Below are positions 21,416-37,709 of a stretch of 64,000 bases of DNA, piece after piece (positions within the stretch are counted from its first letter, which is position 1; every line of letters starts with the position of its first letter). Below the pieces are notes generated by a model. That model made no database searches. It worked only from the letters and a program-made list of their open reading frames with translations, and was not told the DNA's origin. Source of the stretch: an uncultured Clostridia bacterium (lineage in GTDB: Bacteria > Bacillota > Clostridia > Oscillospirales > Acutalibacteraceae); NCBI GenBank assembly GCA_944384825.1, contig CALWUT010000018.1, positions 62,001 through 126,000 of the forward strand, written 5' to 3'. The translations under genes and the position numbers were made by a program.

Positions 21416-22621
21416 TTATTCTTCTTCAAATATATCTGCAAAATACTCTGCAGACCTTTTATCCATTTCCTCTGATATTACAAGATTGTTTGTATCTCTT
21501 TGAGTTTTGTCCAAAACCAAATCTTGATTTTTGGTTATAAATGAATTTATACCCATATAGCAGTGATTGTCTAAATATATCTGATCATTAAGTACAACTA
21601 AGTTGCATATGGAATCTACCGGCTTAATATTATTTATTACTCTTAATAATTCTATATAACTTTCCGTATCTTTTACGCATGATTCCGGAAGCATAACAGT
21701 AAAAATATATCCGTTATCTCCAAAAAGATTTTCAATTAAATCTTTTTGCTTATAGTAGCACATGTTATCTTTAACGTCAAATTGTTCAACTATAATAGGT
21801 TCTACTCCTACATATTCTTCCACTACTCTTGATATTGCTCTGCGCGTACCTTTCATTTTATATATACTTACCGATTCTTTAACAAGCTTTCTTAATCTTT
21901 TTTCTCCCCACATCGAAGGATCCTTTACAGATAACCAGTCTGCCATCCAATTTAAAAAATCTTTTGTAGTGCGATCAGGGTCAAATTTTAGAGGCATTAC
22001 ATCGATTTGATCTTCCAAGTCTACATACACGGATTGAAAAATCCCTAAAAACCTTGATAAAAATGAATTTTCTCCCGCTTCCTTACGATATATCTCCGGT
22101 AAGTAATCCACAAAGGTCACCTGCGGAAATTCAATTTTAACAGACTTTATAATTACAGGATCTTCTACATAACTTATAATCTCTAAACACATCCACAAAT
22201 ATCTTCCTTTAAAATCGTAAAGTAATATATCCGTAGGTGTGTCAAAACTCTTTGCCCCTATTAAATCAAACATATCTATTTTTCGCCCTATAGCTATTGA
22301 ATCATCCTTAATGTACTCATTTATATCTACTTTTGACTTTCCTGCAGCTCCAAACGATGGAATGACTATTTCAGGAGTATCACTTGCATAAATTTTTAGC
22401 TTGTAGCTTGCACTACTGGGCAAGGTTACGTCTAAACGGAGTCTATGCCATGTAGTACCTCTTTGTAAGCTATCAAAGGATTTTGAAATATATACTCCGT
22501 TTTCACCACTTCTACTTCTAAATGTCAGATTATCATTTTCGAAATTTAAATTTTTTAGTATACTTTTATCTTTCCAATCACTTTCTCGATTAAGTATAAA
22601 ATATATAGCTCCTGAAGCCAC
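21416..22621 (-). CDS. Baseplate wedge protein, phage tail protein I (gpI)-like
   Basis: A 401-aa protein. Residues about 175-280 carry a P2 gpI-like signature (FVDYLPEIYRKE, FLSRFLGIFQSVYVDLEDQI, LNWMADWLSV, IYKMKGTRRAI), found in eCIS tail proteins that attach to the baseplate wedge. The N-terminal part is a beta-rich segment resembling a carbohydrate-binding-like or discoidin-type sandwich, uncertain. GGGGAGG precedes the GTG start. It lies directly after the second baseplate-J-type gene, the usual eCIS order. Confidence 0.78.
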   Translation of the reverse strand: MASGAIYFILNRESDWKDKSILKNLNFENDNLTFRSRSGENGVYISKSFDSLQRGTTWHRLRLDVTLPSSASYKLKIYASDTPEIVIPSFGAAGKSKVDINEYIKDDSIAIGRKIDMFDLIGAKSFDTPTDILLYDFKGRYLWMCLEIISYVEDPVIIKSVKIEFPQVTFVDYLPEIYRKEAGENSFLSRFLGIFQSVYVDLEDQIDVMPLKFDPDRTTKDFLNWMADWLSVKDPSMWGEKRLRKLVKESVSIYKMKGTRRAISRVVEEYVGVEPIIVEQFDVKDNMCYYKQKDLIENLFGDNGYIFTVMLPESCVKDTESYIELLRVINNIKPVDSICNLVVLNDQIYLDNHCYMGINSFITKNQDLVLDKTQRDTNNLVISEEMDKRSAEYFADIFEEE

Positions 22622-22632
22622 AAAATCCTCCC

Positions 22633-24795
22633 CTAACTTCTATAAATTTCAGAACTTTTTACGTAACTAAAATCTATCTTTTGAACGTAGTAAACTCCAT
22701 TTGGCGGAATTATTATGTCTTCAGATACATTCTTCTGAGTATTGTTGCCAACAGCTGTTATTCTAAGTTTGTTTAAACTTGAAACATATTTCAAGCGATC
22801 TATCATTCCAAATAAATCTCCAAATTTAAGAGGCTGTCCCATTTCACTATTTATGTTTTTAATAAAGCTTTTTACCTCTTTTTCTATATATTGATCGCTT
22901 TCCCGGTACGAAGAATCTACAGTTATTACTCCGCTTATAATCAATCCTATATACTCAGGACTTACAACTTTTATTTTAGTATTTATAAGTCTGTATTTCT
23001 CAAGATGATTAATAATATTCTTTCTAAAACTTTCAGGCAAAGTCAATCCTACTTTTCTGTTCCACCTTACTGCTATGGTTAGACAATTTTGTTTCATCAA
23101 GTCCTCACCTGGCATGTAATTAGGAAGAATCTTAACATTACTAAACATGAGTCCGGGAGTACTTTTTACTATATTTTCGTAGTCTTTAACCGTTACAGCT
23201 CTTTGTGGATTACTGAAAATATCCGCTGACCTAGCTTGAGCATGAAGTAAAGTTTCTTCATTCCGACCTCCTACAGCCGGCTTTATTTGACGAATCATAC
23301 AATTGTTTATGACTTTATTCTCACTTATAACCGAATTTATCATTCCTTCTTTTATATTAGACTCTCTTCCAAAAGTTTTTCTCAAACTGCATATTTTTAT
23401 ATTGTTTATTCCTATTCTCGGCGCCATTCCCCGTTCATGATCTCCAAATAATATGGCATTCATTTCTTTATCTAAAATGTAATGCCTATCATACTTAGAA
23501 GATGAAAAAAAGTCATCAACCCTTTCCCACTTATAAAATACTTCTTTACCTTCTACCCTTTCGGAAATCATTATTTCTAATCCGTCATAAAGTATGTCTT
23601 TGAAGGATATCTCCGAGCCTTGATGGGAAATTCCGGTTCCGCTACCCAATATCATCTTATCTTCTAACGTTTTTTCGTAAGAAACTATCATAACAGCTTC
23701 TTCATTGTGTCTTAAAGCTTTTATTTCATCCCATATTCCACTAAGATTTACGATTGTTTCACCACGTTTAATGTTGTGCTTAAATACAGGAAGTTCACTT
23801 TTGATCCATCCCCCGTGTTTTTTAAAGTAAACGTCGCTCTTTCCGTACAAAGCTAAATTACTAGACAATTTCACCACGTGGCTTGCAGAAATATCTTCTT
23901 TCTTTATTATAACGTTTTCACATACTGTATCGTTTTGCGCCGCAATAAAAACATTGGTAAGCAGATTATCTATCCTGGGAGGATAATCATATTCATCATA
24001 TTCAAGAACTGCTCTTATTTTATACTCTCCGTCCAAAGGTAGAGTATCACCATTAAATTTCATTTTTATAATACCGGAAAACAAAAAATTGTGAGTATTA
24101 TCATTTACTATTTCTACTTTATGCCAGCCTACTTTTCCTTTTTCTTTTCCATAATACTCCCATTTTACTTTAGCCATTTCTTCAAATTTATCCGAAGGAT
24201 TTATAGGATTTCTTTCCAATCCCTTACTTACATATATCGAGAAATAGAAATTGACTACAGAATTCTTTGGAAGAGAAGAGTCAAAATTGATTGTAAACTT
24301 TCGCTTATTCTGTTTATCATTCTTCCGCCCTATATCTTTTCCGAAAAGGAAAAACGCCTTTTTGCCATCAAACTTATAATATTCTTCCTGCGACGGAAAC
24401 TCAGGATTTTCAAATACTACGCTCAGTATTTTTGATTTAATGAGTATTTGTGAATTTAAATTTTCAAAAATCATATTATTAAATTTCCATTTAGTTCTAA
24501 GCGGAAGATTCACGTTATCCTTTAAACCTGAAACCTCTAAAAGTGTTTCAGATCCTTTGTTTTTGTACATCGAAACATCCAAAAGCTTTAAAAATTTCCT
24601 CTCTACTCCCACAGATATCCGATTAAGATATTCATGCTGTACAAACTTAAGCCACGAAAATAACTCTACTAATGTTATTCCCGGATCAGACTCTTGAAAA
24701 TTAGTCCATTCGGTACTTTGATACAGTATCTGCTTTTTTGCATCTTCAAGGATGCTCTCAAGCGATGCATCATTAAGATTTTGTATTTCAATCAT
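22633..24795 (-). CDS. Baseplate J-like protein (Afp12-type)
   Basis: A roughly 720-aa protein of the putative baseplate assembly family. The N-terminus (WTNFQESDPGITLVELFSWL) is a classic start of Afp12-like proteins. The C-terminal half contains the baseplate-J-type region with YILDKEMNAILFGDHERGM, VGGRNEETLLHAQAR and KTVRD-like VTVKDYENIVKSTPG. The ATG at 24793-24795 is eight nt after AAGGAGG; an in-frame GTG overlaps that site. Together with the 1002-aa protein it would form the wedge ring around the hub. Confidence 0.85.
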   Translation of the reverse strand: MIEIQNLNDASLESILEDAKKQILYQSTEWTNFQESDPGITLVELFSWLKFVQHEYLNRISVGVERKFLKLLDVSMYKNKGSETLLEVSGLKDNVNLPLRTKWKFNNMIFENLNSQILIKSKILSVVFENPEFPSQEEYYKFDGKKAFFLFGKDIGRKNDKQNKRKFTINFDSSLPKNSVVNFYFSIYVSKGLERNPINPSDKFEEMAKVKWEYYGKEKGKVGWHKVEIVNDNTHNFLFSGIIKMKFNGDTLPLDGEYKIRAVLEYDEYDYPPRIDNLLTNVFIAAQNDTVCENVIIKKEDISASHVVKLSSNLALYGKSDVYFKKHGGWIKSELPVFKHNIKRGETIVNLSGIWDEIKALRHNEEAVMIVSYEKTLEDKMILGSGTGISHQGSEISFKDILYDGLEIMISERVEGKEVFYKWERVDDFFSSSKYDRHYILDKEMNAILFGDHERGMAPRIGINNIKICSLRKTFGRESNIKEGMINSVISENKVINNCMIRQIKPAVGGRNEETLLHAQARSADIFSNPQRAVTVKDYENIVKSTPGLMFSNVKILPNYMPGEDLMKQNCLTIAVRWNRKVGLTLPESFRKNIINHLEKYRLINTKIKVVSPEYIGLIISGVITVDSSYRESDQYIEKEVKSFIKNINSEMGQPLKFGDLFGMIDRLKYVSSLNKLRITAVGNNTQKNVSEDIIIPPNGVYYVQKIDFSYVKSSEIYRS

Positions 24796-24817
24796 GTTTT
24801 TCACCTCCTTCAGAGTT

Positions 24818-27800
24818 TTAACCTACCGTTATATTTATTTCAGGCACTCCAAATATCGGAACTACAAATTTATATTTTCCAATATTCTCAAAATCCACTT
24901 CTTTCTTTCCTTCCGGAGTTATAAGCTTAGTAAAAATATTTATATTCTTTATCCATTTAATTCCCGGAACAATTTTTATATAGTTATATATAAATTCTTT
25001 TCTAGGAAATTTACCAATTTCCCATCCCTCTCCGGAAAAATTGCCACGCACAGGATCTAAAAATTTTTTAAGTCTTGTCTCAATTCCACTATAAACTCCT
25101 TGATACGAATTAAAGTCATCTATTACAATATCTACACTTATTGATGTCTCGACGTATCCTACTTCAAAAATCCTAAGCCTTGAAGACTGCGAAAGTGACG
25201 CAGGAGATTTCTCATCTATGAATTTCCAAACTTTATTCTTTATGCCTTGAAACTTTTCATAACCCTGCATATAAACTCTTGGAAGTATAGCTATCGAAGT
25301 AACTCCTATACAAGGATTACTATCTTCATCAAAGTGAGAAAGACATTTAACCCTATATATATTTCTATCGTGAAATCGTATGGAATCTTCAAAGTCGCTT
25401 AATGAAACCAATCGATTTCCTCCTGAAATCTGTCCAAATACTCTTCTAGCGGCACTATCAATCGATTCCATGTCTACTCCACCTAACATTGGAGAAAGGT
25501 TGTACACTCCATCAATATGAGGAATAGTATTAACAAAATCCTTTATTTCCTTTATTCCTATATTACCTTTGCTTCCATTGCATACCGAATATTCTATCTT
25601 TATACTTTCATTATACTGTTCCGGAGGTATTTTACCATTTCTGCCGTTTCCAAATATTATTTCTCCTTTTGAATAATCAACTTCATAAACTCTGTCATTT
25701 ACGCCGTAAGATATCAAATTAGAAACTTTTTTCCATTTTATCCATAATTTTTCTAAGCGTCCTAATTCATCGTATTCAGGATTTACTTTATCTACTGAAC
25801 ACTTTAAAAACATTTCCTGTTCGGAAGTTGATATCTTGCCGAACTCATCTATCCATACTTCTACATTCGCAATATTTGAATGTGAAAGCTTACAATGCTT
25901 GTCTTCCTCATCTTTTTCAATCCAAAAGTACTCCGGCGGACGGGTATCTTTCTGCATAGCACGGATGGAATTGAACTTTATGTCATTTATTACAGGACGA
26001 TTAGAAATATCGGCATTGTAGGAATATGTGTTATCCTGGTTAACAATTCTAACAAAATATCCAGTAACTCCAAATATCGTACTCTCTACAAAATCGTTTT
26101 TACCTATCATGGTTACTGTTTCGGTATGAGAAAAATTATCAGTAGCATCCATTACCTCAATATGCTTCCATTGAGCTTCACCTTTGTGATTTCTAGCTAA
26201 GTACTCCCATTTAAGAGTAGGATTAAATCTGTGAATTCCCTCTTCTATGTTTATAAGAATTCTTATCATGCCTTGTACCAAAGGCTTACTCAAGCACATA
26301 TACATCGCAGGACTTTTACAAATGCGTCTTTCCATAAGAACGCTCAAGCCTTTATCAGAAAGATTTATAAAATTACTTTCCAAATCCGATTTTACTATTA
26401 CGTTATCAAACTGATGTTCACTACCTTCATAATTATATTTAACTTTAAAGTCATGAACATAGGGAGTAATAAAATTTGCATAAAAGTCAAATCTATCACT
26501 CATTTTGGTTATTCTAGACCTTATAAAATACCCATTTGCCGACCCTACCGAAACGCTTTGAATATCTTCAGGACACTTAAATTTTAATACCCTCTCCGAT
26601 ATCTTTTCTTCTTTTAAAGTGAAAAATTCTTCTCCGTTTTCAAAAGTCTCCAGCCTTGCCCATCCCGATCCATTCCAATACTCCCACTTAACCTTTTCTA
26701 TTTTTATATCTCCAGGCTCAAGATCCGCAAAATCTATGTCACTCATTATTGACTTATATTTTTTACCGGGAATTTTCATATTAGTATTTATCTTTACAAA
26801 CTGAACTCCGGCACTTAATTCTATTATAGCTCCCTTTTTAGTAAACGCTTCATCAGAAGCAACTGAAAATCTATTATACATTGTATACTCTTCGTCAAAA
26901 GGATAAAAATCGTTTTCTGCAAGTTGAGTATCATCAGCAAAAAATGAATCCGCAGGAATATAGTCAGATACAGATTGATATTTTATTGAAGTTACCCTTA
27001 TATCACCTTCAGGTACTATCTTAAACCTGCATCTTAAAAAACGTGATTCTTTATCTAATACCTTTGTAGGTATACTACTTCCTTTAAATTTTATCTTCAC
27101 CCCCAGTTCAGTCTTTTGAACTGAATCCACACTTTTCCACTTTTTGCCGTCATAGTACTCCCATGTTACATTATCAGGATCCGAAAAAATTGCGGGAAGT
27201 GAGTTTTGCCCTATCGCTGACAAATTATTATAAAAGGAAAATATTACATCTGTATTCGACATATTAAATACTATATCATCCCAAAAGTACATTTCATGAC
27301 TCTGCAAATTTTTGCAAAACATATTATCAAATATTCTAAATGGAATTATTTCCTTTTCTTTTTCTAATTTTACATTCTCGTAAACACAACTTATAACGTC
27401 TTTTATACCATCCGTAAAATAAACAGCCTTTAAAGTGGTGTCAATAGCAGTCAAAGCGTCCAAGGTTTCATAAATAACCATTCCATCTTCATTATCAGCA
27501 GGAGCAAAAAGTCTGGTTCCTTGGTCAATATAAACTCCTTTTGAACTTCCGGAAGATTTTACTATTATCATACCCGATGCAGAAGTGGCAGGCCGCAGCT
27601 TAGTTCCAAGCATATTAAGAAAAGTTAGATAATAATTATATAAAGTTTTATTATATCTGCTTAAAGTATCCTCCATCATATTACAAAAAACTTTAGCAAA
27701 AACTATCCCTAAGTCTTCACTGTTTTCATCAAAATTCCATTCAGGTATATACTGCTTAGCCAGTCTCTTAACTTCATTCATTAAATCACTGAAATCTCTT

Positions 27801-27826
27801 TCATCTAATTTAGGTATCTCACTCAT
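24818..27826 (-). CDS. Baseplate J-like protein (Afp11-type)
   Basis: A 1002-aa protein. The N-terminus (LVEIF-like IVFAKVFCNMMEDTLSRYN) and repeated WEYYDGKKW/WEYWNGSGW modules are typical of Afp11-type wedge proteins. Later it has YEVDYSKGEIIFGNGRNGKIP and GGVDMESIDSAARRVFG, the baseplate-J signatures. It is probably the main wedge scaffold. Unusually, I see no ribosome binding site before its ATG, so translation may depend on coupling to the gp25-like gene or an unrecognised signal. Confidence 0.87.
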   Translation of the reverse strand: MSEIPKLDERDFSDLMNEVKRLAKQYIPEWNFDENSEDLGIVFAKVFCNMMEDTLSRYNKTLYNYYLTFLNMLGTKLRPATSASGMIIVKSSGSSKGVYIDQGTRLFAPADNEDGMVIYETLDALTAIDTTLKAVYFTDGIKDVISCVYENVKLEKEKEIIPFRIFDNMFCKNLQSHEMYFWDDIVFNMSNTDVIFSFYNNLSAIGQNSLPAIFSDPDNVTWEYYDGKKWKSVDSVQKTELGVKIKFKGSSIPTKVLDKESRFLRCRFKIVPEGDIRVTSIKYQSVSDYIPADSFFADDTQLAENDFYPFDEEYTMYNRFSVASDEAFTKKGAIIELSAGVQFVKINTNMKIPGKKYKSIMSDIDFADLEPGDIKIEKVKWEYWNGSGWARLETFENGEEFFTLKEEKISERVLKFKCPEDIQSVSVGSANGYFIRSRITKMSDRFDFYANFITPYVHDFKVKYNYEGSEHQFDNVIVKSDLESNFINLSDKGLSVLMERRICKSPAMYMCLSKPLVQGMIRILINIEEGIHRFNPTLKWEYLARNHKGEAQWKHIEVMDATDNFSHTETVTMIGKNDFVESTIFGVTGYFVRIVNQDNTYSYNADISNRPVINDIKFNSIRAMQKDTRPPEYFWIEKDEEDKHCKLSHSNIANVEVWIDEFGKISTSEQEMFLKCSVDKVNPEYDELGRLEKLWIKWKKVSNLISYGVNDRVYEVDYSKGEIIFGNGRNGKIPPEQYNESIKIEYSVCNGSKGNIGIKEIKDFVNTIPHIDGVYNLSPMLGGVDMESIDSAARRVFGQISGGNRLVSLSDFEDSIRFHDRNIYRVKCLSHFDEDSNPCIGVTSIAILPRVYMQGYEKFQGIKNKVWKFIDEKSPASLSQSSRLRIFEVGYVETSISVDIVIDDFNSYQGVYSGIETRLKKFLDPVRGNFSGEGWEIGKFPRKEFIYNYIKIVPGIKWIKNINIFTKLITPEGKKEVDFENIGKYKFVVPIFGVPEINITVG

Positions 27827-27936
27827 ATTATAAGGTAAAAATCTTTAAGCTTATTTTAAAAACAGTTATTCACTTAAAGGCATTTTTCCCTTCTTCACAT
27901 CCTTTCATAGAGCTGTAAACATTAAAAGGATTTTTC

Positions 27937-28326
27937 CTATCTATCATTTGAATCTATCCGAGCACTTATCTGTTCTTGAGTCGGCTCGATATCCGTAATG
28001 TAGTCTATAACCGCTTCTACTTGCGAAACCGGTCCAGAAGACGCTTTGATAGAAACATTTAAGTCCCTAATATGACTTTCCCATAATTTAAGCGAAGAAC
28101 TAATGGAAGTTTTTAAATTAGAAATAAATCTGGGATCTACAATTTCAAACATAAACGCTCTCAGATCTGTTCCAAAATTCGGAACTATTTTTCTTTCATG
28201 TCTTTGAGTGCCCAGTATTACTTTCACGGCTTGTTTCACATTCTCATTATCCTCTATAGTTTTTATTTTACCTGTATTCTTGTCTATTTCAATAGGGAAC
28301 TTCCAACCTCTTAAAGTTGTTTCCAT
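27937..28326 (-). CDS. Baseplate wedge protein, gp25-like
   Basis: A 129-aa gp25/lysozyme-like (PF04965) protein, the inner wedge component that triggers sheath assembly in T4, T6SS (TssE) and eCIS. WKFPIEIDKNTGKI at the start, the conserved VKQAVKVILGTQRHERKIVP and FGTDLRAFMFE fit well; EPR-type residues are here GTQRHERKI. AGGAGG precedes the ATG. It follows the spike gene by 24 bp. Confidence 0.9.
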   Translation of the reverse strand: METTLRGWKFPIEIDKNTGKIKTIEDNENVKQAVKVILGTQRHERKIVPNFGTDLRAFMFEIVDPRFISNLKTSISSSLKLWESHIRDLNVSIKASSGPVSQVEAVIDYITDIEPTQEQISARIDSNDR

Positions 28327-28350
28327 TTCTTTTTCCTCCTACTGTTTATG

Positions 28351-29106
28351 TCAATTTATTTTAGTTATAGATCCTTTAACTACAGTCTGTCCGCTTGAAC
28401 TGATTTCCGCTCCTGCAGATCCGGTAGCTTTAAACTGAGCACTTGCTTCACACTCTAAATTTGCATTTGCTTTAATATTCACTCCATTTACATTAACTTC
28501 TAGTTTTCCCCCTGAACTGGAAAGATTAAGTCCTTTTTGATTTTCAAGAACTAAAGTATCCTGCCCTGCAGAAAATGAAATTTTTGAATCCGCTTTAAGC
28601 TCTATTTCGCCATTCTTAAAATCTACTCTAAACCCTGTTTTTCCAGTCTTTTCTTGAACTTCAAGCTGTTCATTTTCTCCGTCGTCTAAAGAAATTATAT
28701 GGCCTTTTTTAGTAGTTATAGTAATTTTTTGTTGGTCTTGTTTATTGTTTATTTCAATTTTTAACTCTGCTGGAAATTGAATCATCATTATTTCGTTTTC
28801 TTCGTTTATTTGAAGAGGAGGTTTGCTTTGTGCGTTATATAAGCTTCCGAGTATAACAGGATTATTTATCTGCCCGTCTACAAATCCAACTAATACTTCT
28901 GCACCTTTTTGCGGTATAAAAACAGTTCCAAAATTTTCCCCCGCAAAAGTAGCCATAACATCCGCTAACGGACTTTCCAATTCTTCTTCTACCAACATTA
29001 CTTTTATTCTATTAAGTCCATCCGGATCATTTAAATCCTTTACAATTCCTCTTTTTAATCCTAATACATTATTATTCTTAAAATTATCAATACTACCTGC
29101 AAACAT
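28351..29106 (-). CDS. Central spike protein, gp5/VgrG C-half type
   Basis: A 251-aa spike. Residues about 15-95 form the OB-fold (GIVKDLNDPDGLNRIKVML, FIPQKGAEVLVGFVDG, NNPVILGSLYN), and the rest is a repetitive beta-helix-like stretch (ISFSAGQDTLVLEN, LEVNVNGVNIKA). With the separate gp27-like hub upstream it equals a split VgrG. No PAAR tip gene follows, so the tip may be the C-terminal repeat itself or be encoded elsewhere. GGAGG precedes the ATG. Confidence 0.9.
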   Translation of the reverse strand: MFAGSIDNFKNNNVLGLKRGIVKDLNDPDGLNRIKVMLVEEELESPLADVMATFAGENFGTVFIPQKGAEVLVGFVDGQINNPVILGSLYNAQSKPPLQINEENEIMMIQFPAELKIEINNKQDQQKITITTKKGHIISLDDGENEQLEVQEKTGKTGFRVDFKNGEIELKADSKISFSAGQDTLVLENQKGLNLSSSGGKLEVNVNGVNIKANANLECEASAQFKATGSAGAEISSSGQTVVKGSITKIN

Positions 29107-29123
29107 ACATTAATTCCTCCTCC

Positions 29124-30290
29124 CTAAAAAAAGCTAATCCCAGATTCTTGCGGACTAAACCTATTCGTACTTAAAGTAAGAACAGTAGTATACCTCGAAC
29201 CGCTTGATGAAGCATTATCTAAAATACATCGATGTTCAATTCCGCTAATAATATAATCATTATCAATGGGATCTCCAAAATTATCAAGTGTTACTTTACT
29301 TCCAAGCTCTACTTCCGGATATCCTATAATTTCTAAATTTACCTCCATTAAATTTAATTCACGTCTGTTATATATAGCTTCAGCTAAAAATTTTGCTTCA
29401 CTTACCGATGTTATAGTATTATCTATAATAGTTATGGTATTTGCATCGCTTATGTTGGATGTAAGAGAAGTTGCTGATTTACCATCTCCTATACTATTTG
29501 AATTTGTAGCTTTAGCTTCGATTAACATGTTTTTATCCTTTTGGTCTACTCCAACTACTTTAACAACCTTTGGAATTCCCCATACACTCGCACACATTTT
29601 TATATTTAATATAGCGTTTCCGGGTTTTATTTTTAACTTGGGAGAATTAAGCGATGATGGACTTACAAAGTAAATCTTTCCTTGGTCTATAAAAAACAAG
29701 CATCCCGTTAGTATACTTATACGCTTTAAAAATTCAAAATCACTTTCATTTCGTTGATATATCGGTGCTTCAAACTTTACTTCTCCATCTATATCTACTT
29801 CCTTGCCTTCAAGTTTACTTGAATAATCATTGCATACATTGTTTACTACTACCGAATATTTTTTTATATCCTTTTTTAGCTCTGTTTTTCGACTCGCCAT
29901 CATCCACATTTTAGCGTCCATGCCTTGAATATTAAGTATAGCACGTTCTTTATTATCTACTTCTATTTCAAATGATGAAATATAACCCTTGAATGCCGTT
30001 TCGACTTTAGGCTTTTCACCTACAATGTATCCTAATGAAATTTCCAACTCTACGCCTAACTTAACTTGTGAAAAATCGGAATTAAGCTTTATTTTTTTCC
30101 CATCATAATCTACTGAAGGCAATATTAACGTCGCTTCGCAAGTGCTGGCTTCCCCTTTTACCGAAGAAAAAACATATACATGTGTAATAAATATGTCATT
30201 AGAACTCCAATTTTTGTTTTTTATCTTTATACTAGCTGTAGGATAAAAACAGCTTTCATTATCATCCATGTAATCTTCCAAAAAACCCAT
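29124..30290 (-). CDS. Baseplate hub protein, gp27/gpD-like (VgrG N-half)
   Basis: A 388-aa protein similar to phage late control gene D proteins and the N-terminal half of VgrG/Afp8. Key stretches are FKGYISSFEIEVD, IYQRNESDFEFLKRISILTGC and PSLNSP-like surface loops, ending in a VTLDNFGDPIDNDYIISGIEH domain that joins the tube end to the spike. It is 17 bp from the spike gene, making a translationally close hub-spike pair. Confidence 0.88.
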   Translation of the reverse strand: MGFLEDYMDDNESCFYPTASIKIKNKNWSSNDIFITHVYVFSSVKGEASTCEATLILPSVDYDGKKIKLNSDFSQVKLGVELEISLGYIVGEKPKVETAFKGYISSFEIEVDNKERAILNIQGMDAKMWMMASRKTELKKDIKKYSVVVNNVCNDYSSKLEGKEVDIDGEVKFEAPIYQRNESDFEFLKRISILTGCLFFIDQGKIYFVSPSSLNSPKLKIKPGNAILNIKMCASVWGIPKVVKVVGVDQKDKNMLIEAKATNSNSIGDGKSATSLTSNISDANTITIIDNTITSVSEAKFLAEAIYNRRELNLMEVNLEIIGYPEVELGSKVTLDNFGDPIDNDYIISGIEHRCILDNASSSGSRYTTVLTLSTNRFSPQESGISFF

Positions 30291-30341: not shown

Positions 30342-33023
30342 TTAAAATATTCCACTTCTTCTTTTGTCAATCGAAAATTTACGTTCAATTTTATTAATTA
30401 CAACTTGTGAAATTGATTCTATATCAATATCGCCTATATATGACTTTATTAAATTTTCTATTTCTTTTTTTCCTAAAGTATTTGCCATAACACGTTTTTC
30501 CATTGCTTTGGCGTCTAACGTATTTGGAACTAAAGATTTAGGTTTTTCTTTAATAATTACATCAGGTTCTTCTTTGATGCTTAAAGGTTCTTCTTTTACC
30601 GGTTCTTTAATTTCTTCCTTAGCGGCCTTAATATTCTCTTTGTAGACAATATGAGATTTATCTACATATATTTCTTTAGGTTTATCTATTCTAAAAACTT
30701 TAGTCATTCTAAAATTTTCACGATTTATAAGCTTCGTAATATCCAGTTTTTCAGGAGCGTAAAAAACTCTTAAATCCTCTATGAACTTTTTTTGATTATT
30801 AAGAGTCATCTTTCTTTGCTGCGTGTAATGAATATCTTTAAGACTTTTAAATAACTGAAACTGGTTCAAAACTTTTTGTCCATCGTGATTAATAAATCTC
30901 TGAAATACATTTAACTTATTTAAATTTTCATCTATATGCTCTAAATACTTAAATCTATCTACAGTAGTATAGGTAATTCTTTCTTTTAACTTTTTAACTA
31001 ATTCTTTATTAAATTTATTTATTATTAAGTTATCATTATGATTTACGAAATCATAATTAATTTTTTCTTTAATTCCCGACTTAACTTTATTAAACTTCAC
31101 AGTATCGTAAACTTTAAAACTCTTCTTCGAAGTTAAATTTTTTGTCACTTCAGAATAAAGTTTCTTGTATGCATATACATGATCTTTAGTATCTAAATTT
31201 AAATATTCACGAACATTTTGGGAATTTAAATTTACGTAAATTTTTTGTAAGCTATGCCGTTGAAAGCTTTCTTTGTTTATCTCGTCGTTACGATTTAACA
31301 AAGCTTTATAATTAGTGTATTTGTTCTTAAGTTCTTTTATAAAAACATTATTTTCATGAATATCCTTTATTAATTTATTATCAACATTTATTACATGTCT
31401 ATTTACATTCGTTCTTTGTTTAATTTCTTTATTTTCGTTTTCTTTTCTATGATAAAATAAATTTTTATTTATAATTTTATACAAACTTGTTTCTTCATCG
31501 TAAGAAAAATCTTTGAATATATTTTCAGAAATAGCTTTAAAATTAAGTCTATCTTTTCCTTTTGCCCCAACTAAAAATCTTGATCCCTTTAGCTTATTCC
31601 TAATTTCTTCTGCTGTAATGTTTTTCCTTTGAATTTTACTTAAAAGATTTTTATTAATTTCTATTATATTCTTAGTCAGATCAACTTTATCATAAACAGC
31701 ATGAGCTTCATCTTTAGAAGTTCTATAAAATAGAGTTTTATTTACAATCTTATTCTTGCTAATACTTTTATTAAGAAAAGAGCTTTGAATTGAATTCTCA
31801 TAAATGTTATTAAATTTTAATACTCTTCCGCTCTGAAGTACAAGCTTATTTAAATTCTTCTTTACTAAATTTTCTACATTTAGACCTATACTTTTATTAT
31901 TTCTAAAAAGATCCGTGAAAGTTTGAGAAATCGTTTTTGAACTATGTAATTTCTTTACTTCACCATATAAATTCTTGATTTCTCGTTTACTTCTTGCCTG
32001 TTCGTTTAGGTAATGCTCTTGATATTGAGTTACATTTTCACGCAGTTCATTAATTTGGGTTTTTACTACTATTTTATTAATTAGCTCCGTCTCAGAAGGC
32101 AAAGACTTATATACCTTCTTGTTTAAAACGCGTTCTATAAGAGATTTGGTTTTACTTAGTATTTTTATTTCAGAAATGCGAGAATGAATTTTAATAATAG
32201 GTAAAATAATCCCGGATTTATTAACGATACTATTTTCATAAATATGATTTATAGTTTTTAAAAATTTCTTATCTTTTTTTATAAGTTTACGAATTGAAGG
32301 ATCTTCTAAAATTTCATTATAAATTTCTTCGGAATAATTTTCAAATAAGCTTTTTTCTTCATTCTTTATTCCTTTAGGAATTTTGGATGGAAGCAAGTCT
32401 TTATGAAAATTTTTCTTTAAAACTAATGAATTATGAATATTTTCATGCAATGAAACTTCACTAATTATTTTTCTATAATTAGCAAAAGTTTTTTCTAAGT
32501 TTATATTAAATATTCGATGTTTAAGAAAAATGCTATCCGCTAATGAAGGATTTTCCTGGGATTTTTTTTTTGAATTTTCTAAAAAAGAATTTAAAATATT
32601 CGTAAGAGTTTTAGGGTCAAAGGAGTTGCTCGAAACTACTTCTAACTCTTTAATTTGTTTTTTCGTAAGCTTATGACTTATACGAAAGATTTCATTTTTT
32701 AATTGATTAAGAATTTGTTCACGTAAAACTGTATTATTTTGAACAATTATATTTTGATCATCTTGAGCTGCCCGAAGCTGTAAAAGTAAATCTATAATTG
32801 TTCCAAAAAGTTCTGAATTTAATCCTTCAGCTTTTGAGGTATCGTACACTAAATTTTTTGAATCACCAAAATAAACAGGTCCATCAATAACGCTAGCTAT
32901 CTTATTTTTTTCAAAAATTTTATTGCAAAAACTATTATTGTACTTTAACCTTACTAACCCTGATGAGGATCTTAAATTTTGTAAAGATGCAGATACTTTG
33001 GGTTTAATAGGCTCATTCTTCAT
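30342..33023 (-). CDS. Large helical basic protein in the eCIS cluster; candidate tape measure
   Basis: An 893-aa Lys/Asn/Ile-rich, Gly/Ala-poor protein with no signal peptide or membrane segment. It looks almost entirely helical. Short internal similarities recur, such as IYENSI (twice) and the pair NKTLFYR/NKNLFYH followed by VIN/NLL helices. A Pro/Glu/Lys linker (about residues 800-825) joins a C-terminal helix ending DKRRSGIF, which resembles the ERERRG-ending helices I remember from other eCIS-cluster proteins. By position (after the tube and chaperone-like genes, before the hub) a tape measure is the best guess; a cargo or internal filling protein is also possible. No homology is claimed. 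Confidence 0.55.
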   Translation of the reverse strand: MKNEPIKPKVSASLQNLRSSSGLVRLKYNNSFCNKIFEKNKIASVIDGPVYFGDSKNLVYDTSKAEGLNSELFGTIIDLLLQLRAAQDDQNIIVQNNTVLREQILNQLKNEIFRISHKLTKKQIKELEVVSSNSFDPKTLTNILNSFLENSKKKSQENPSLADSIFLKHRIFNINLEKTFANYRKIISEVSLHENIHNSLVLKKNFHKDLLPSKIPKGIKNEEKSLFENYSEEIYNEILEDPSIRKLIKKDKKFLKTINHIYENSIVNKSGIILPIIKIHSRISEIKILSKTKSLIERVLNKKVYKSLPSETELINKIVVKTQINELRENVTQYQEHYLNEQARSKREIKNLYGEVKKLHSSKTISQTFTDLFRNNKSIGLNVENLVKKNLNKLVLQSGRVLKFNNIYENSIQSSFLNKSISKNKIVNKTLFYRTSKDEAHAVYDKVDLTKNIIEINKNLLSKIQRKNITAEEIRNKLKGSRFLVGAKGKDRLNFKAISENIFKDFSYDEETSLYKIINKNLFYHRKENENKEIKQRTNVNRHVINVDNKLIKDIHENNVFIKELKNKYTNYKALLNRNDEINKESFQRHSLQKIYVNLNSQNVREYLNLDTKDHVYAYKKLYSEVTKNLTSKKSFKVYDTVKFNKVKSGIKEKINYDFVNHNDNLIINKFNKELVKKLKERITYTTVDRFKYLEHIDENLNKLNVFQRFINHDGQKVLNQFQLFKSLKDIHYTQQRKMTLNNQKKFIEDLRVFYAPEKLDITKLINRENFRMTKVFRIDKPKEIYVDKSHIVYKENIKAAKEEIKEPVKEEPLSIKEEPDVIIKEKPKSLVPNTLDAKAMEKRVMANTLGKKEIENLIKSYIGDIDIESISQVVINKIERKFSIDKRRSGIF

Positions 33024-33840: not shown

Positions 33841-34737
33841 TCATATTTCTTCTGTCTCTGCAGCTTCTTCGTTACTATCTTCCTGTCCTTCTTCTCGTGA
33901 ACGTCTAAGCTCTTCTTCCTTTTTTGCACGTTCTTCCTCTAATCTCTCTTTTTCTTTTTTTTCTTTTTCCAATTCTTTTTCTTCTTCTCTTTTTTTACGA
34001 ATTAATGCAAGTTCTTCTTCTTTTTTTCTCTTAAGCTCTTCTGCCGCCTTCCGACGTTCTTCTATTTCTTCAGCTCTACTAGATGCTGATTGGGCATTAC
34101 TTAAAGTCTCGGCATCAGAAACCAAACTCATAATGCTACGGGCAATTGGAGGTACCGGATCAACCGGATGCCGAATTAAACCCGTATGTGCTACCGTAAA
34201 CTCTTCACATAATATGCTACCGGAAGTTGCATCTAAATCATCTGCTCTCCAGGAAATAGTACCTAAAGAGAAAAATGAATATAGTGCTCTAAGCTTTCTT
34301 TCCCTATTAAAGACCTGAATCGTCCCAAGAGAAGGTCCCGAATCCAATGATTCCTGAGGGTCAAGCATGTTTAAACGTAACAACGCTTGCTGTCTAACCA
34401 TATTAACAGGAATGGCAGCGGCAGCAGCACGTGCAACTTGACTCAAAATTGTAGGACTCCTCATAATCATTCCGCGCCTAAAAGTAAGAGTAGGATGTTC
34501 ATAGGAAGGCCTTCCAACCATAATTTCATGATCATTAACTCCGCCTTCTGAAATATAATCAACAGATTTTTCTATCGAAAACCCTGAAACACTTTGAAAT
34601 CCAAACGTAAACTCATTAAGCATAACAATAAAACTAAAAGGATAAAATGCACAGTCCATAGCGGATATCCTCGCTTGAGGTATTATATGAACCGCTTCCC
34701 CACTTTCGCTTTTAGCATAAGCATTTATTCCCAGCAT
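33841..34737 (-). CDS. Second tube-like (gp19 family) protein with long charged helix
   Basis: A 298-aa protein. Residues about 1-200 have the T4 gp19-like tail tube fold pattern (PFSFIVMLNEFTFGFQSVSGF, IVGRPSYEHPTLTFRRGM, quoted in parts, and EEFTVAHTGLIRHP near the end of the fold). This suggests an inner-tube or tube-initiator protein (Afp5-like). The last 90 residues are E/K/R-rich and probably form a single alpha-helix or coiled coil, unusual for tube proteins. AGGAGG precedes the ATG. Confidence 0.75.
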   Translation of the reverse strand: MLGINAYAKSESGEAVHIIPQARISAMDCAFYPFSFIVMLNEFTFGFQSVSGFSIEKSVDYISEGGVNDHEIMVGRPSYEHPTLTFRRGMIMRSPTILSQVARAAAAAIPVNMVRQQALLRLNMLDPQESLDSGPSLGTIQVFNRERKLRALYSFFSLGTISWRADDLDATSGSILCEEFTVAHTGLIRHPVDPVPPIARSIMSLVSDAETLSNAQSASSRAEEIEERRKAAEELKRKKEEELALIRKKREEEKELEKEKKEKERLEEERAKKEEELRRSREEGQEDSNEEAAETEEI

Positions 34738-34768: not shown

Positions 34769-34972
34769 TTAATCTATATCAAATATGTTCTTTCTATTTC
34801 CACTTGACTCTGCATTCATCTTTTTGTTTATTTTTGAAACCTCAGAACAGAATCTAATTCTTTCTTTGTGCGGTAACTCCATTAATTCATGGCGCGACCA
34901 ATGAAAGTAATAAGCCAAAAAAGCTATCTCTTCATAGATTACTTCAACTGGATAACTTTTTAGGCTTCCCCG
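34769..34972 (-). CDS. DUF6760-like domain, probably expressed by -1 frameshift
   Basis: This open frame encodes 67 residues after the shift point (SYPVEVIYEEIAFLAYYFHW, then HELMELPHKERIRF), which match my memory of the small DUF6760 proteins found next to T4_baseplate genes in eCIS. There is no ATG, GTG or TTG between the in-frame TGA upstream and the conserved region, and no ribosome site. The upstream gene ends in the 0 frame four codons after a T_TTT_TTC heptamer at 34972-34978. A -1 slip there joins the two, giving a 188-aa fusion, like the G/GT tail chaperones of phage lambda. An ATT start is the only other option I see. Confidence 0.75.
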   Translation of the reverse strand, partial: RGSLKSYPVEVIYEEIAFLAYYFHWSRHELMELPHKERIRFCSEVSKINKKMNAESSGNRKNIFDID

Positions 34973-35334
34973 AAAAAAGGCAATTCAGACCTAAATTCAT
35001 GCGCGCATTTCGGACAAACCACTTTCATAATCGGTGGTTCAACTGCGTTTATTTTCTGATAAAGATCCTGCAAATAAGCCATATCCGCTGTAAAAAGACT
35101 TTCTATTACATGAGCGTCCACTTTCTTTAATTTCCCAAGTTTAGTTACAACTCTTTCTAAAAGCAGCACACTTAAATATCCCGGATTCATTTTAACGCGC
35201 GGATCATTAAGCGGAATAATTTCATCAGCTGCATTTGCAAGTCTCATAACGCCACGTCTGTGGATTTCTCCCGTTTTATCTACGTATCCACGTGGTAACT
35301 CAAATTCAAATTCTGTTTCAAAAGTATTAGCCAT
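34960..35334 (-). CDS. T4_baseplate-type protein (PF12322-like), tail chaperone position
   Basis: A 124-aa protein that follows the tube gene, as in other eCIS clusters. Typical blocks are LPRGYVDKTGEIHRRGVMRLA, DPRVKMNPGYLSVLLLERVVTKLG (each in part) and a C-terminal zinc-ribbon-like VCPKCAHEF. In eCIS annotation this family is called T4 bacteriophage base plate protein; its position equals the tail assembly chaperone of phages. The last codons carry the slippery heptamer described for the next feature, so two products (124 and 188 aa) are predicted. Confidence 0.85.
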   Translation of the reverse strand: MANTFETEFEFELPRGYVDKTGEIHRRGVMRLANAADEIIPLNDPRVKMNPGYLSVLLLERVVTKLGKLKKVDAHVIESLFTADMAYLQDLYQKINAVEPPIMKVVCPKCAHEFRSELPFFGEA

Positions 35335-35425: not shown

Positions 35426-35950
35426 TTAACCAGTTGCTACTGAAACATCTCTTCTGATTCCCTCGTGTGCTAAAGTTAGAGTTTCTATTAATATTGAAGA
35501 ATCTTCAGCACTAAGATCTCCAGATCTATAAGAAGTAGGCCATGCATTTATTACGCTCCAACTTGCCGTTGGTTCTCCTGCGTTATTATAAACTGTAATA
35601 ACAGCATTAACCGGTGTAAAATTATTCCCTTCAAGAAAGTCATTGAAAAAGTTATATAAAAGTGGGTTAGAATAAAGTCCCTTTTCTAAAGTTATATCAT
35701 CATAGCTTACTAATCCTGGTAATTTTCTGGAAGTTAGATATCCAAATCCGCCTTCACGATAAGGGTTACTATCGACCGTAGATGAAAATCCTGCTACACT
35801 TTTAAATGAAGTAGTACCAAGTCCTTCAAAGTTTGCAGTAAATCTGAACCCTCTTAACGGAGAAGATAATCCGTTTGTAATTGACGCTCTAGTTGATAAC
35901 ACCTCTGTGCCTAACTCTTGGATACCTGTGGTTGCTAAGCCATCTGCCAT
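35426..35950 (-). CDS. Inner tube protein, gp19/Afp1-like
   Basis: A 174-aa protein of the phage tail region/T4 gp19-like family. It has PLRGFRFTANFEGLGTTSFKSVAGF near residues 30-55 (in part), YLTSRKLPGLVSYDDITLEKGLY in the middle and SILIETLTLAHEGIRRD at the end, typical of Afp1/Pvc1 tube subunits. Hexameric rings of it would line the tail inside the sheath. AAGGAG precedes the ATG. It lies 37 bp after the sheath gene. Confidence 0.92.
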   Translation of the reverse strand: MADGLATTGIQELGTEVLSTRASITNGLSSPLRGFRFTANFEGLGTTSFKSVAGFSSTVDSNPYREGGFGYLTSRKLPGLVSYDDITLEKGLYSNPLLYNFFNDFLEGNNFTPVNAVITVYNNAGEPTASWSVINAWPTSYRSGDLSAEDSSILIETLTLAHEGIRRDVSVATG

Positions 35951-35987: not shown

Positions 35988-37709
35988 TTATTCACCTGTT
36001 TTTTGAGTTATTCTGAAAATTACAAATTCAGCAGGTTTTACCGGTGCAACACCTATTACACATACTAAACGCCCATTATCAATATCATCTTTAGTCATTG
36101 TATTTTGTCCGATATCTACGAAGAACGCATCGGCCGGTGAAGCTCCTACCAGCGCACCTGTTCTCCAAATTCCTTCCAAGAATATTTCAATCGTTCTTCT
36201 TACTCTGGACCATAATGTTACATCGTTTGGTTCAAAAACTACCCAGTTCGTATTTGCTTTTATGGATTCTTCAAGATATATAAATAAGCGCCGAACGTTG
36301 ATATACTTCCATAAAGGCTTGGATGAAGCAGTTCTTGCTCCCCAAACCCTTATGCCAGCTCCGGGAAATTTACGAATCAAATTGACTCCCCTTGGGTTTA
36401 ATAAATCTTGCTCTCCTACATTGTAATTCACGAATAAACCAGTACAATTTGACACTACTTCATTAGCTGGAGCTTTATGCACTCCTCTATCATTATCACT
36501 TCTTGCATATATTCCCATCACTGAACCTGAAGGAGGAATAAATGTTTCTTTTTTATCAAGAGGATCAAAAACTTGTAGCCAAGGATGATACATAGCACAG
36601 TAATCACTATCAACTATATCACGATGCTGTAAGACATCCGTTACAGTCTTAGAAGTCATAGGCATGTCCAAAACTGCAAACCTACTTGCTAATTTTTCGC
36701 AGTGTGCAACCAAGGAAAGTTGAACATTTGGACTTACTATTCCCGGAATCGCCATTATATTTACATCTGCATTATCTAAAAACGCTTGAATGCCTGTCCT
36801 GGAACCCGGTCCCTCATCTTTACCAATAAAATCTGCATCAGTTAAGCTTGAAGCTGTACCATTTGCACCTCCAGTTAAGGTTACTTTTATTTCTTCACTT
36901 TCTGTACCGAATACTTGTCTTACAACGTCAATAGGAGATACCGCTTCTTCCATAGGCTGTGCCTTAAGTGAAACTATTTCAGACTTGGCCATAGCTTTTT
37001 CTATAAAGTTCGGTAAAAGAACATTGAAAGAAACTCCACTATACTTTTCTAAAATCTCATTTTGTTCAACTACAACGTTCATTTCGCAATTTTTAATAGT
37101 AACTTTAGGAAGCAGCCCGGTATCTACTACATTGCCTTCGAATGGTTCTGAAAATGTAACTACGTCGCCGGTAACTTTTGTAACTACGCCAAATTTTGGT
37201 TCACCGTCACCTTCAACTTCAACAACGTCCCCTACATTAAAACCTACTGCACTCTTTAATTTGTATTGAGCTTTACCTAGATCTTCAAGGATTTGAGTCT
37301 TACTACTGCTCGAAGGTTCAAAAGTTATTAAAATTGAATTGCCCCAAGCACCAGGATCTTTAGCAGAAATTTCCAAAACACCCTCTTTGCCCTCTTGACA
37401 TGCAGCCTTTGCAGTAGTTGCATCAGAAGGTGCAACCCGCATAACAAATGCTCTTGATCCACCATTAATGAAGAAGTGATTGACAGCATGTGCTAAAAAC
37501 CTATATTCTCCAAATTCATTTTCATGCAAATATCCACCAAATTTACGCGTAAAATCTGCTGGACCGGTTACAAGAACGGGAGAACCTGAAACAGGACCTT
37601 TTTCTGCTACTCCTATAAATCCGGCTGTACTTGTACCAACACCTTGCATGGGAGTAGGACCACTGTCAAACTCTTCTACATAAACTCCCGGAGATAAATA
37701 TTCTGCCAT
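35988..37709 (-). CDS. Contractile tail sheath protein
   Basis: A 573-aa sheath of the phage tail sheath family (Afp2/Pvc2-like). The N-terminus YLSPGVYVEEFDSGPTPMQG and the C-terminal core (VNYNVGEQDLLNPRGVNLIR, WGARTAS, YINVRRLFIYLEESIKANTN, GASPADAFFVDIG) are diagnostic. An inserted domain covers about residues 120-290. Many eCIS clusters carry two or three sheath paralogues; only one is present here. It is the first structural gene after the 312-aa leader gene. Confidence 0.95.
   Translation of the reverse strand: MAEYLSPGVYVEEFDSGPTPMQGVGTSTAGFIGVAEKGPVSGSPVLVTGPADFTRKFGGYLHENEFGEYRFLAHAVNHFFINGGSRAFVMRVAPSDATTAKAACQEGKEGVLEISAKDPGAWGNSILITFEPSSSSKTQILEDLGKAQYKLKSAVGFNVGDVVEVEGDGEPKFGVVTKVTGDVVTFSEPFEGNVVDTGLLPKVTIKNCEMNVVVEQNEILEKYSGVSFNVLLPNFIEKAMAKSEIVSLKAQPMEEAVSPIDVVRQVFGTESEEIKVTLTGGANGTASSLTDADFIGKDEGPGSRTGIQAFLDNADVNIMAIPGIVSPNVQLSLVAHCEKLASRFAVLDMPMTSKTVTDVLQHRDIVDSDYCAMYHPWLQVFDPLDKKETFIPPSGSVMGIYARSDNDRGVHKAPANEVVSNCTGLFVNYNVGEQDLLNPRGVNLIRKFPGAGIRVWGARTASSKPLWKYINVRRLFIYLEESIKANTNWVVFEPNDVTLWSRVRRTIEIFLEGIWRTGALVGASPADAFFVDIGQNTMTKDDIDNGRLVCVIGVAPVKPAEFVIFRITQKTGE

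What the first reader, a model, noticed from the sequence alone, without database searches (positions are those of the whole stretch)
34769..35334. Programmed -1 frameshift in an eCIS operon, joining a T4_baseplate-type protein to a DUF6760-like domain
Seen: the 124-aa gene carries T_TTT_TTC in the correct zero-frame phase (34972-34978), four codons before its stop. The -1 frame is closed by TGA four codons before the slip site, then open for 67 residues that look like DUF6760. That second ORF has no ATG, GTG or TTG and no ribosome site. Known: phage tails use exactly this layout (lambda G/GT chaperones) between the tube and tape-measure genes. Inference: the injection system makes 124- and 188-aa products in a fixed ratio, both perhaps chaperones for the 893-aa protein. 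I am not aware of this being described for eCIS.
Basis: partly seen in the sequence, partly recalled or inferred. Interest (0 to 1): 0.88.

Follow-up and report, generated by a model that had tools for sequence, protein, structure and literature searches.

The report
Programmed frameshift in bacterial injection system
A phage-tail-like injection machine in this bacterium appears to make one assembly helper protein in a short and a long form by having some ribosomes slip back one base, and the same signal is kept in relatives across bacteria and archaea, which suggests that these machines are built by a ratio-controlled step known so far from virus tails.

Summary
Confirmed and strengthened. 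On the minus strand a 124-aa gene (35334-34960) carries T_TTT_TTC (34978-34972) in zero-frame phase. A DUF6760 domain (PF20546, 62.5 bits) lies in the -1 frame with no ordinary start before its conserved core. I examined 133 loci from Bacteria and Archaea, the window's own included; 120 were unique and in the -1 arrangement. Of these, 119 of 120 have an in-phase slippery motif, against 21 expected from synonymous shuffles and 6 of 160 control junctions. Lineages use different motifs (TTTTTTN, AAATTTT, GGGGGAR, GGGGGGN, GGGAAAN). A covarying 3' hairpin and an upstream Shine-Dalgarno-like element show synonymous constraint; the 5' element is weak in the window itself. The zero-frame protein resembles a phage tail-assembly-chaperone family, and DUF6760 resembles the P2 E' frameshift extension. 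Best reading: a lambda G/GT- or P2 E/E+E'-type chaperone pair made by programmed -1 frameshifting in a contractile injection system. The "T4_baseplate" label was not supported; the role towards the 893-aa protein is inference. My searches of the held library found no description of this in eCIS.

The parts
34960..35334 (-). Zero-frame gene, 124 aa: tail-assembly-chaperone-like protein with one C-terminal CxxC pair
   Evidence: phrog_508 tail assembly chaperone, window member E 0.0027; AlphaFold2 pLDDT 84.8, Foldseek best hit YqbN 3klu, E 0.5, not significant
34972..34978 (-). Slippery heptamer T_TTT_TTC in zero-frame phase
34769..34984 (-). -1 frame (open from after TGA 34987-34985 to TAA 34771-34769), DUF6760 domain; 67 residues after the slip
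   Evidence: PF20546 62.5 bits
34913..34966 (-). 3' hairpin, 5 nt after the heptamer; z -5.5 against synonymous shuffles
   Evidence: pair counts in 7 family loci
34989..34992 (-). Weak SD-like AGGT, 10 nt before the heptamer (duplex energy -3.1 kcal/mol; weaker than the mean over loci, -7.0)
   Evidence: family-wide test
35426..35950 (-). Tube protein (Phage_T4_gp19), directly upstream
35988..37709 (-). Sheath protein
33841..34737 (-). Second tube-like protein (gp19; weak CIS5 family match), directly downstream
30342..33023 (-). 893-aa protein, no family; candidate tape measure by position only
   Evidence: no match
21416..30290 (-). Hub candidate (29124-30290, GPD match below cut-off), spike (28351-29106), gp25 (27937-28326), baseplate assembly candidate (24818-27826, TIGR02243 below cut-off), baseplate J (22633-24804), tail I (21416-22621)

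Best explanation
The junction is a programmed -1 ribosomal frameshift cassette. Most ribosomes read the 124-aa tail-assembly-chaperone-like protein. A fraction pause at the 3' hairpin, slip back one base on T_TTT_TTC and continue into DUF6760, giving a 188-aa fusion. By homology with phage P2 E/E+E' and lambda G/GT, the short form probably coats the length-determining protein, and the DUF6760 tail of the long form recruits tube subunits, so the ratio helps tube assembly. Shown by sequence: frame relation, slippery site, hairpin, their conservation and synonymous constraint, and family resemblances. Inferred: that slippage happens, its efficiency, the chaperone role and the client.
For: (1) 119 of 120 unique -1 loci have an in-phase slippery motif, 21.0 +/- 4.0 expected; control overlapping junctions 6 of 160. 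(2) The motif type differs by lineage: GGGGGAR 72, TTTTTTN 23, AAATTTT 16, GGGGGGN 4, GGGAAAN 2, two weak others, none 1; about 10 changes among three main classes on a quick tree, though well-supported branches force far fewer. (3) Synonymous constraint: of 77 loci with Gly-Glu near the stop, 75 use GGG (14.7 expected); in the 70 of these without a T- or A-type site the preceding codon ends in G in 70 (30.6 expected) over ten different residues. (4) The 60 nt starting 5 nt after the heptamer fold more stably than synonymous shuffles (mean z -2.39, n 117; later windows -0.3 to -0.6), with covariation. (5) SD-like element 5' of the site, mean z -1.09, t -13, n 119. (6) 74 of 120 have no ATG/GTG/TTG from 60 nt upstream to the core; 8 lack even ATN/NTG near-cognates there. 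(7) DUF6760 matches P2 E' by hhalign, 92.3%, E 5.5e-7 over 29 columns; zero-frame protein matches phrog_508, best E 2.7e-9. (8) GGGGGAA is reported for all 'fivetwo' sites of annotated, untested phage frameshifts (PMC10885494, passages).
Against: No expression data. GGGGGAR was added as a motif after I had seen the loci. The loci are related by descent, so counts are not independent. In 20 of 120 loci an ordinary start follows the slip site, so initiation may add to or replace slippage there (Streptomyces, Rhizobium, haloarchaea, several methanogens and others). The SD-like element is weak in the window itself (-3.1 kcal/mol). L016 has no slippery motif; those of L028 and L108 are weak. Five of 132 loci are not in -1 register (L030, L042, L052, L069, L116). 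Some covariation measures were not beyond shuffles (see full report). The zero-frame protein did not match P2 gpE by hhalign (0.2%); the 51-of-51 phrog_508 count is at E up to 1 and the window member scores only 0.0027; Pfam Gp41_Mu matched 3 of 51, best E 0.0011, fewer than the 4 for DUF7575. The YqbN structural match is not significant (E 0.5). DUF6760 had no meaningful PDB structural match. No decoy profile was run for the hhalign result.
Confidence: 0.87

Rival explanations
1. DUF6760 is made as a separate protein by termination-reinitiation at a non-standard start (ATT, ATA, ATC, CTG) overlapping or near the stop of the upstream gene.
For: The annotated DUF6760 genes start at ATT in Pseudanabaena and ATA in Nostoc; in many loci GAA-TAA makes an ATA codon across the stop; 20 of 120 have an ordinary start after the slip site.
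Against: 8 of 120 loci have no ATN or NTG codon in the stretch searched. The commonest SD-like positions lie, by my reading, about 8-10 nt before the heptamer, farther from these codons than usual for initiation. Reinitiation does not explain the in-phase heptamer, the G before GGG across ten residues or the hairpin 5-8 nt after it. In L012 the -1 frame stays open through an insert of about 130 nt between the two genes, although that locus also has TTG and ATG before the core.
Confidence: 0.08
2. Transcriptional slippage on the homopolymer run produces mRNAs with altered length, which are then translated normally into the fusion.
For: The window's site is a T6 run in an AT-rich stretch; many sites are G5-G7 runs.
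Against: Bacterial slippage is described on runs of 9 A or T (PMC5009743, passage); here runs are mostly 5-7. AAATTTT and GGGAAAC sites without a further T run hold no long run. Zero-frame phase, SD-like element and RNA hairpin point to ribosomes.
Confidence: 0.03
3. The frameshift is real, but the short and long products are structural or regulatory parts (e.g. baseplate or plug) rather than assembly chaperones.
For: No function tested. The zero-frame family has a conserved CxxC motif not known to me from phage chaperones. P2 gpE itself did not match.
Against: phrog_508 tail assembly chaperone matches, weak Gp41_Mu matches, P2 E' match, position directly after the tube gene. Neither family's profile matched a solved contractile-particle chain, as expected for proteins absent from mature particles, though that is weak evidence.
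Confidence: 0.2
4. The layout is a sequencing error or a decaying gene.
For: Out-of-register layouts exist in the set (L042, L052, L069, L116).
Against: Same layout in 120 unique loci with conserved proteins on both sides.
Confidence: 0.01

Closest known systems
Phage P2 gpE / gpE+E' (tail assembly chaperone, -1 frameshift)
   Same: -1 frame extension after a tube gene, T_TTT_TTG site, E' extension similar to DUF6760 (hhalign 92.3%, E 5.5e-7); P2 and 11 selected related records (phages and two plasmids with phage genes) have an in-phase heptamer in 12 of 12, including AAATTTT and GGGAAAG, though the stretch searched was long in a few
   Different: Zero-frame proteins do not match each other by hhalign (0.2%). 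P2 has the tape measure gene directly after E'; here a second tube gene follows. Phage rather than eCIS.
Phage lambda gpG / gpGT
   Same: Low-level -1 frameshift near the end of the first gene gives a chaperone pair; the T part binds the tube protein (PMC5009743, passages)
   Different: No sequence comparison with lambda was made here; lambda's site differs (recalled).
Phage Mu gp41 chaperone
   Same: Weak Gp41_Mu similarity of the zero-frame protein in 3 of 51 members
   Different: Mu is annotated with a -2 frameshift; here -1.
E. coli dnaX frameshift cassette
   Same: SD-like element, slippery heptamer and 3' stem-loop (PMC5009743, passages)
   Different: Different gene; in dnaX about 50% of ribosomes shift and make the shorter product, whereas here the shift would give the longer one.
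Actinobacteriophage frameshifts with GGGGGAA ('fivetwo')
   Same: Same slippery motif as the commonest eCIS class (PMC10885494, passages)
   Different: Phages; frameshifts annotated, not tested; not eCIS.

Membership tests
Phage tail-assembly-chaperone frameshift pair (G/GT, E/E+E' kind) | Extension in the -1 frame of the first gene, without its own start | tested here: met
   window has no ATG/GTG/TTG before the core. 74 of 120 loci likewise; 46 of 120 have one within the stretch, 20 loci after the slip site
Phage tail-assembly-chaperone frameshift pair (G/GT, E/E+E' kind) | In-phase slippery site in the overlap | tested here: met
   119 of 120; window T_TTT_TTC
Phage tail-assembly-chaperone frameshift pair (G/GT, E/E+E' kind) | Zero-frame protein related to known chaperones | tested here: met
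   phrog_508 in 51 of 51 at E up to 1, best 2.7e-9, window member 0.0027; hhalign to P2 gpE failed, Foldseek to YqbN not significant
Phage tail-assembly-chaperone frameshift pair (G/GT, E/E+E' kind) | Extension related to known extension domains | tested here: met
   hhalign to P2 E' 92.3%, E 5.5e-7, no decoy run; PF06528 in 21 of 51 at E up to 1, best 0.0035, window member none
Phage tail-assembly-chaperone frameshift pair (G/GT, E/E+E' kind) | Gene lies between tube and tape measure genes | tested here: inconclusive
   Directly after the tube; the 893-aa candidate matches no family and a second tube gene intervenes
Phage tail-assembly-chaperone frameshift pair (G/GT, E/E+E' kind) | Both products are made, in a set ratio, and are absent from the particle | not testable with these tools
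   needs proteomics or reporters
DUF6760 (PF20546) | Score above the curated cut-off | tested here: met
   62.5 bits, cut-off 27
   No such match for the window protein at E up to 1 or among 51 members at E up to 0.01; a profile-profile comparison with that family was not made
Extracellular contractile injection system (eCIS) | Sheath, tube, spike, gp25 and baseplate genes without head genes | tested here: met
   no capsid, portal or terminase match among the 29 window products given to Pfam; other window ORFs were not scanned
Extracellular contractile injection system (eCIS) | eCIS-specific cap/adaptor genes (Pvc16, CIS5, CIS13) | tested here: inconclusive
   Pvc16_N over cut-off but on another contig; CIS5 and CIS13 matches below curated cut-offs; AAA ATPase not sought
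dnaX-type three-part frameshift cassette | 5' SD-like element | tested here: inconclusive
   Enriched across loci, weak in the window
dnaX-type three-part frameshift cassette | 3' hairpin 5-9 nt after the site (spacing range recalled) | tested here: met
   5 nt in the window; 5 nt in 49 and 8 nt in 26 of 76 GGGGGAR/GGGGGGN loci, 17 nt in one; z and pair counts

The most novel reading that the evidence does not exclude
One frameshift-made chaperone pair is a general, ancient assembly component of this branch of contractile injection systems in both Bacteria and Archaea. DUF6760 mostly exists only as a frameshift extension. The slip motif has been swapped repeatedly (TTTTTTN, AAATTTT, GGGGGAR, GGGAAAN) while slipperiness, the 5' SD-like element and the 3' hairpin were kept, and methanogen/ANME copies would be programmed -1 frameshifts in archaeal cellular genomes.
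Probability: 0.65. Interest if true: 0.85.

Novelty: new variant of a known kind. Interest (0 to 1): 0.76.

Why it matters
Contractile injection systems are studied as natural weapons and as engineered protein-delivery devices, yet how tube length and assembly are set is not clear in all of them; two Streptomyces clusters, for instance, are reported to lack a typical tape measure protein (PMC10066040, passages). A hidden fusion protein made by frameshifting would be missed by standard annotation: DUF6760 is annotated as a stand-alone gene starting at ATT in Pseudanabaena and at ATA in Nostoc, and it could be lost when genes are recoded or cloned one by one. It would supply a missing phage-like assembly step, give a function to DUF6760, and add a widespread cross-domain example of programmed frameshifting in cellular genomes. 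It is testable with a reporter and with junction-spanning peptides.

Tried and rejected
T4_baseplate identity for the 124-aa protein: not supported by Pfam. Link to the Cis6/Afp6 spike plug: Cis6 is resolved in a cyanobacterial CIS structure (PMC8894136, passage), but the DUF6760 profile matched no CIS chain in the PDB sequences, so this identity was dropped. Viral-contig search with the tube protein confirmed no relative. tblastn of DUF6760 against phages found nothing at E up to 0.01, so a phage copy of this exact family was not seen. Viral-contig search with P2 E' returned 80 listed loci all 100% identical to the query, useless for a profile; I fetched 11 diverse hits instead (of 40 listed from 258 records). 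Zero-frame protein against P2 gpE by hhalign: no match. DUF6760 model (pLDDT 72) against PDB: no meaningful hit. Transcriptional slippage and reinitiation considered and ranked low (see rivals). A first dinucleotide-shuffle hairpin test was replaced by the stricter synonymous shuffle. The statistic on G-class codons was circular (selected on the motif) and was redone unconditionally.

Full report
WHAT IS THERE. On the minus strand, 35334 to 34960 encodes a 124-aa protein ending CCT TTT TTC GGG GAA GCC TAA. The heptamer TTTTTTC at 34978-34972 is therefore in X_XXY_YYZ phase. The -1 frame is closed by TGA at 34987-34985 and then open to TAA at 34771-34769. Its product is DUF6760 (PF20546, 62.5 bits, cut-off 27), the only match in the 1.18-Mb genome. 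There is no ATG, GTG or TTG before the conserved core; a TTG (34918) and an ATG (34882) lie inside it. The fusion would be 188 aa.

SETTING. The operon holds a sheath, two gp19-type tube proteins, a spike, gp25, baseplate J and tail-I proteins, and a weak hub match, with CIS5, CIS13 and TIGR02243 matches below their curated cut-offs. It lies among chromosomal genes such as LemA, SpoIIR and OGG. No head gene was matched among the 29 window products given to Pfam; the remaining window ORFs were not scanned. Pvc16_N is on another contig. This fits an extracellular contractile injection system, possibly split in the genome.

RELATED LOCI. PF20546 was sought in 200 genomes of the same family (10 with a match), 394 of the order (21) and 398 of the phylum (13); these sets overlap and each includes the window's own genome. 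I added 11 of 18 plasmid records with a hit and the best 80 of 462 confirmed relatives from one pattern scan of the species collection, whose titles include Firmicutes, cyanobacteria, Nitrospirota, an actinobacterium, proteobacteria, Omnitrophota and many methanogen/ANME archaea. Of 133 loci (L001-L133, the window's own being L001), DUF6760 was re-found in 132 (not L029). Five are not in -1 register (L030, L042, L052, L069, L116) and seven are duplicates, which leaves 120 unique -1 loci.

SLIPPERY SITES. Of the 120, 119 have an in-phase motif (X_XXY_YYZ or G_GGG_GAR), against 21.0 +/- 4.0 in synonymous shuffles with each locus's own codon usage. Overlapping -1 junctions with ordinary starts in loci L043-L133 had one in 6 of 160, or 3 of 160 against 116 of 120 when only the last nine codons count. 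Classes: GGGGGAR 72, TTTTTTN 23, AAATTTT 16, GGGGGGN 4, GGGAAAN 2, two weak (L028, L108), none in L016. GGGGGAR was added after seeing the loci. A passage in the PRFect paper (PMC10885494) reports GGGGGAA for all of its 'fivetwo' motifs in SEA-PHAGES data and explains it by G:U re-pairing; those frameshifts were annotated, not tested. A test that does not depend on the motif: of 77 loci with Gly-Glu near the stop, 75 use GGG (14.7 expected); among the 70 of these without a T- or A-type site the codon before ends in G in 70 (30.6 expected) across ten residue types, 9 of the 70 being the non-degenerate Trp or Met. On a quick tree of 117 loci built without the slip-site columns the three main classes need 10 changes; well-supported branches alone force only one or two per class.

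STARTS. 74 of 120 have no ATG/GTG/TTG in the DUF6760 frame from 60 nt upstream to the conserved Tyr of the core; 46 have one. 20 have one after the slip site, and 8 have no ATN or NTG codon in that stretch. Those 20 include Streptomyces, Streptantibioticus, Rhizobium, two haloarchaea, Nitrospira, several methanogens/Methanoperedens and some Firmicutes; each has both a slippery motif and a start, so it may use either route.

STIMULATORS. A 60-nt window starting 5 nt after the heptamer has mean z -2.39 (se 0.17, n 117, 59% below -2) against synonymous shuffles, while windows further on have -0.3 to -0.6. In the window the hairpin is 34966-34913, 5 nt after the heptamer, -16 kcal/mol, z -5.5. In 76 GGGGGAR/GGGGGGN loci the spacer is 5 nt in 49, 8 nt in 26 and 17 nt in one. 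Pair counts: in 71 distinct sequences of 78 G-type loci 89.1% of cells pair, with 25 double changes against 10.0 +/- 2.5 in shuffles (0 of 500 as high) and covariation score 0.185 against 0.144 (0 of 500); but the number of pairs with a double change was ordinary (4 against 3.7, 310 of 500 as high) and further pair types were reached in 10 of 500. In 7 loci of the window's family 94.9% pair, with 5 double changes in 4 pairs against 1.1 (0 of 500), while further pair types were ordinary (358 of 500). These shuffles do not remove relatedness, and the structures were drawn from these same sequences. An SD-like element 5' of the site is stronger than in synonymous shuffles (mean z -1.09, t -13, n 119), and by my reading of the duplex positions it most often ends roughly 8-10 nt before the heptamer; it is weak in the window itself (-3.1 kcal/mol).

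WHAT THE PROTEINS ARE. Of 51 zero-frame proteins, 51 match phrog_508, tail assembly chaperone, at E up to 1 (best 2.7e-9; window member 0.0027). In Pfam at E up to 0.01 only weak matches appear: DUF7575 in 4, Gp41_Mu in 3 (best 0.0011), a zinc ribbon in 3 and single others; the window member has none. The AlphaFold2 model (pLDDT 84.8) has YqbN 3klu as best Foldseek hit, at E 0.5. That YqbN is a phage-type tail assembly chaperone is recalled. DUF6760 matches the P2 E' extension: hhalign 92.3%, E 5.5e-7 over 29 columns, no decoy run, with weak PF06528 matches in 21 of 51 at E up to 1, not the window member, and phrog_1756 'tail protein' in 31 of 51 at E up to 1. P2 is annotated with a -1 frameshift and Mu with a -2 frameshift. 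In P2 and 11 selected relatives the extension is in the -1 frame with an in-phase heptamer in 12 of 12; 5 of the 12 also have an ATG/GTG/TTG somewhere in the open stretch. Zero-frame protein against P2 gpE gave no match. Neither eCIS profile matched a solved contractile-particle chain; the one hit of each at E up to 1 was unrelated.

MECHANISM. The best reading is programmed -1 frameshifting that makes a short chaperone and a long chaperone-DUF6760 fusion. In lambda, gpG binds the tape measure protein and the T part of gpGT binds the tube subunit, with neither in the mature virion (PMC5009743, passages). I infer the same division here; the client, the ratio and slippage itself are unproven. 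The 893-aa protein is a tape-measure candidate by position only.

LITERATURE. Searches for eCIS or contractile injection with frameshift(ing), for DUF6760, for contractile injection with assembly chaperone and tape measure, and for GGGGGAA listed no paper that, by title, start of abstract, or passages read in seven papers, describes this in eCIS. I read no paper whole. The library holds only open-licence PMC papers, so a report elsewhere is possible. A reference entry seen (Vladimirov et al. 2022) concerns T4-like phage chaperones; its title suggests a route other than frameshifting.

Noticed in passing
window 14306-15814 (-): TLC ATP/ADP transporter (PF03219, 467.8 bits) in a 1.18-Mb genome that also has a SpoIIR-like gene: suggests an energy-parasitic, host-associated life for this bacterium.
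   Followed up: no
L012 (about 1332-1677): About 130 nt inserted between the chaperone stop and DUF6760, yet the -1 frame stays open from TTTTTTG through the insert into DUF6760.
   Followed up: partly
L016: Similar insert in a related genome, -1 frame open but no strict slippery heptamer; ATG codons before DUF6760.
   Followed up: partly
L030: A second, lone DUF6760 with its own ATG, after a tube-like gene; the upstream ORF is not the chaperone.
   Followed up: no
L042, L052, L069, L116: Upstream frame is out of register with the usual layout; intact copies exist in relatives.
   Followed up: no
L050, L095 (haloarchaea): GGGAAAC in phase together with an ordinary start for DUF6760 at the overlap.
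   Followed up: no
L047, L053, L048: The annotated DUF6760 gene starts at ATT in Pseudanabaena, ATA in Nostoc and at a TTG inside the core in Rhodococcus, as if no normal start was found.
   Followed up: partly
window 30342-33023 and 33082-33708 (-): 893-aa and 208-aa operon proteins with no confident match in Pfam or NCBIfam.
   Followed up: no
L225 (Zymomonas pZM36): A plasmid with phage genes whose gene annotated Gp41 is followed by a P2 E'-like extension in the -1 frame at a T-run heptamer.
   Followed up: no
window 34960-35334 (-): The zero-frame family keeps a single CxxC pair near its C-terminus (C107, P108, C110 at least 90% conserved), just before the slip site; role unknown.
   Followed up: no
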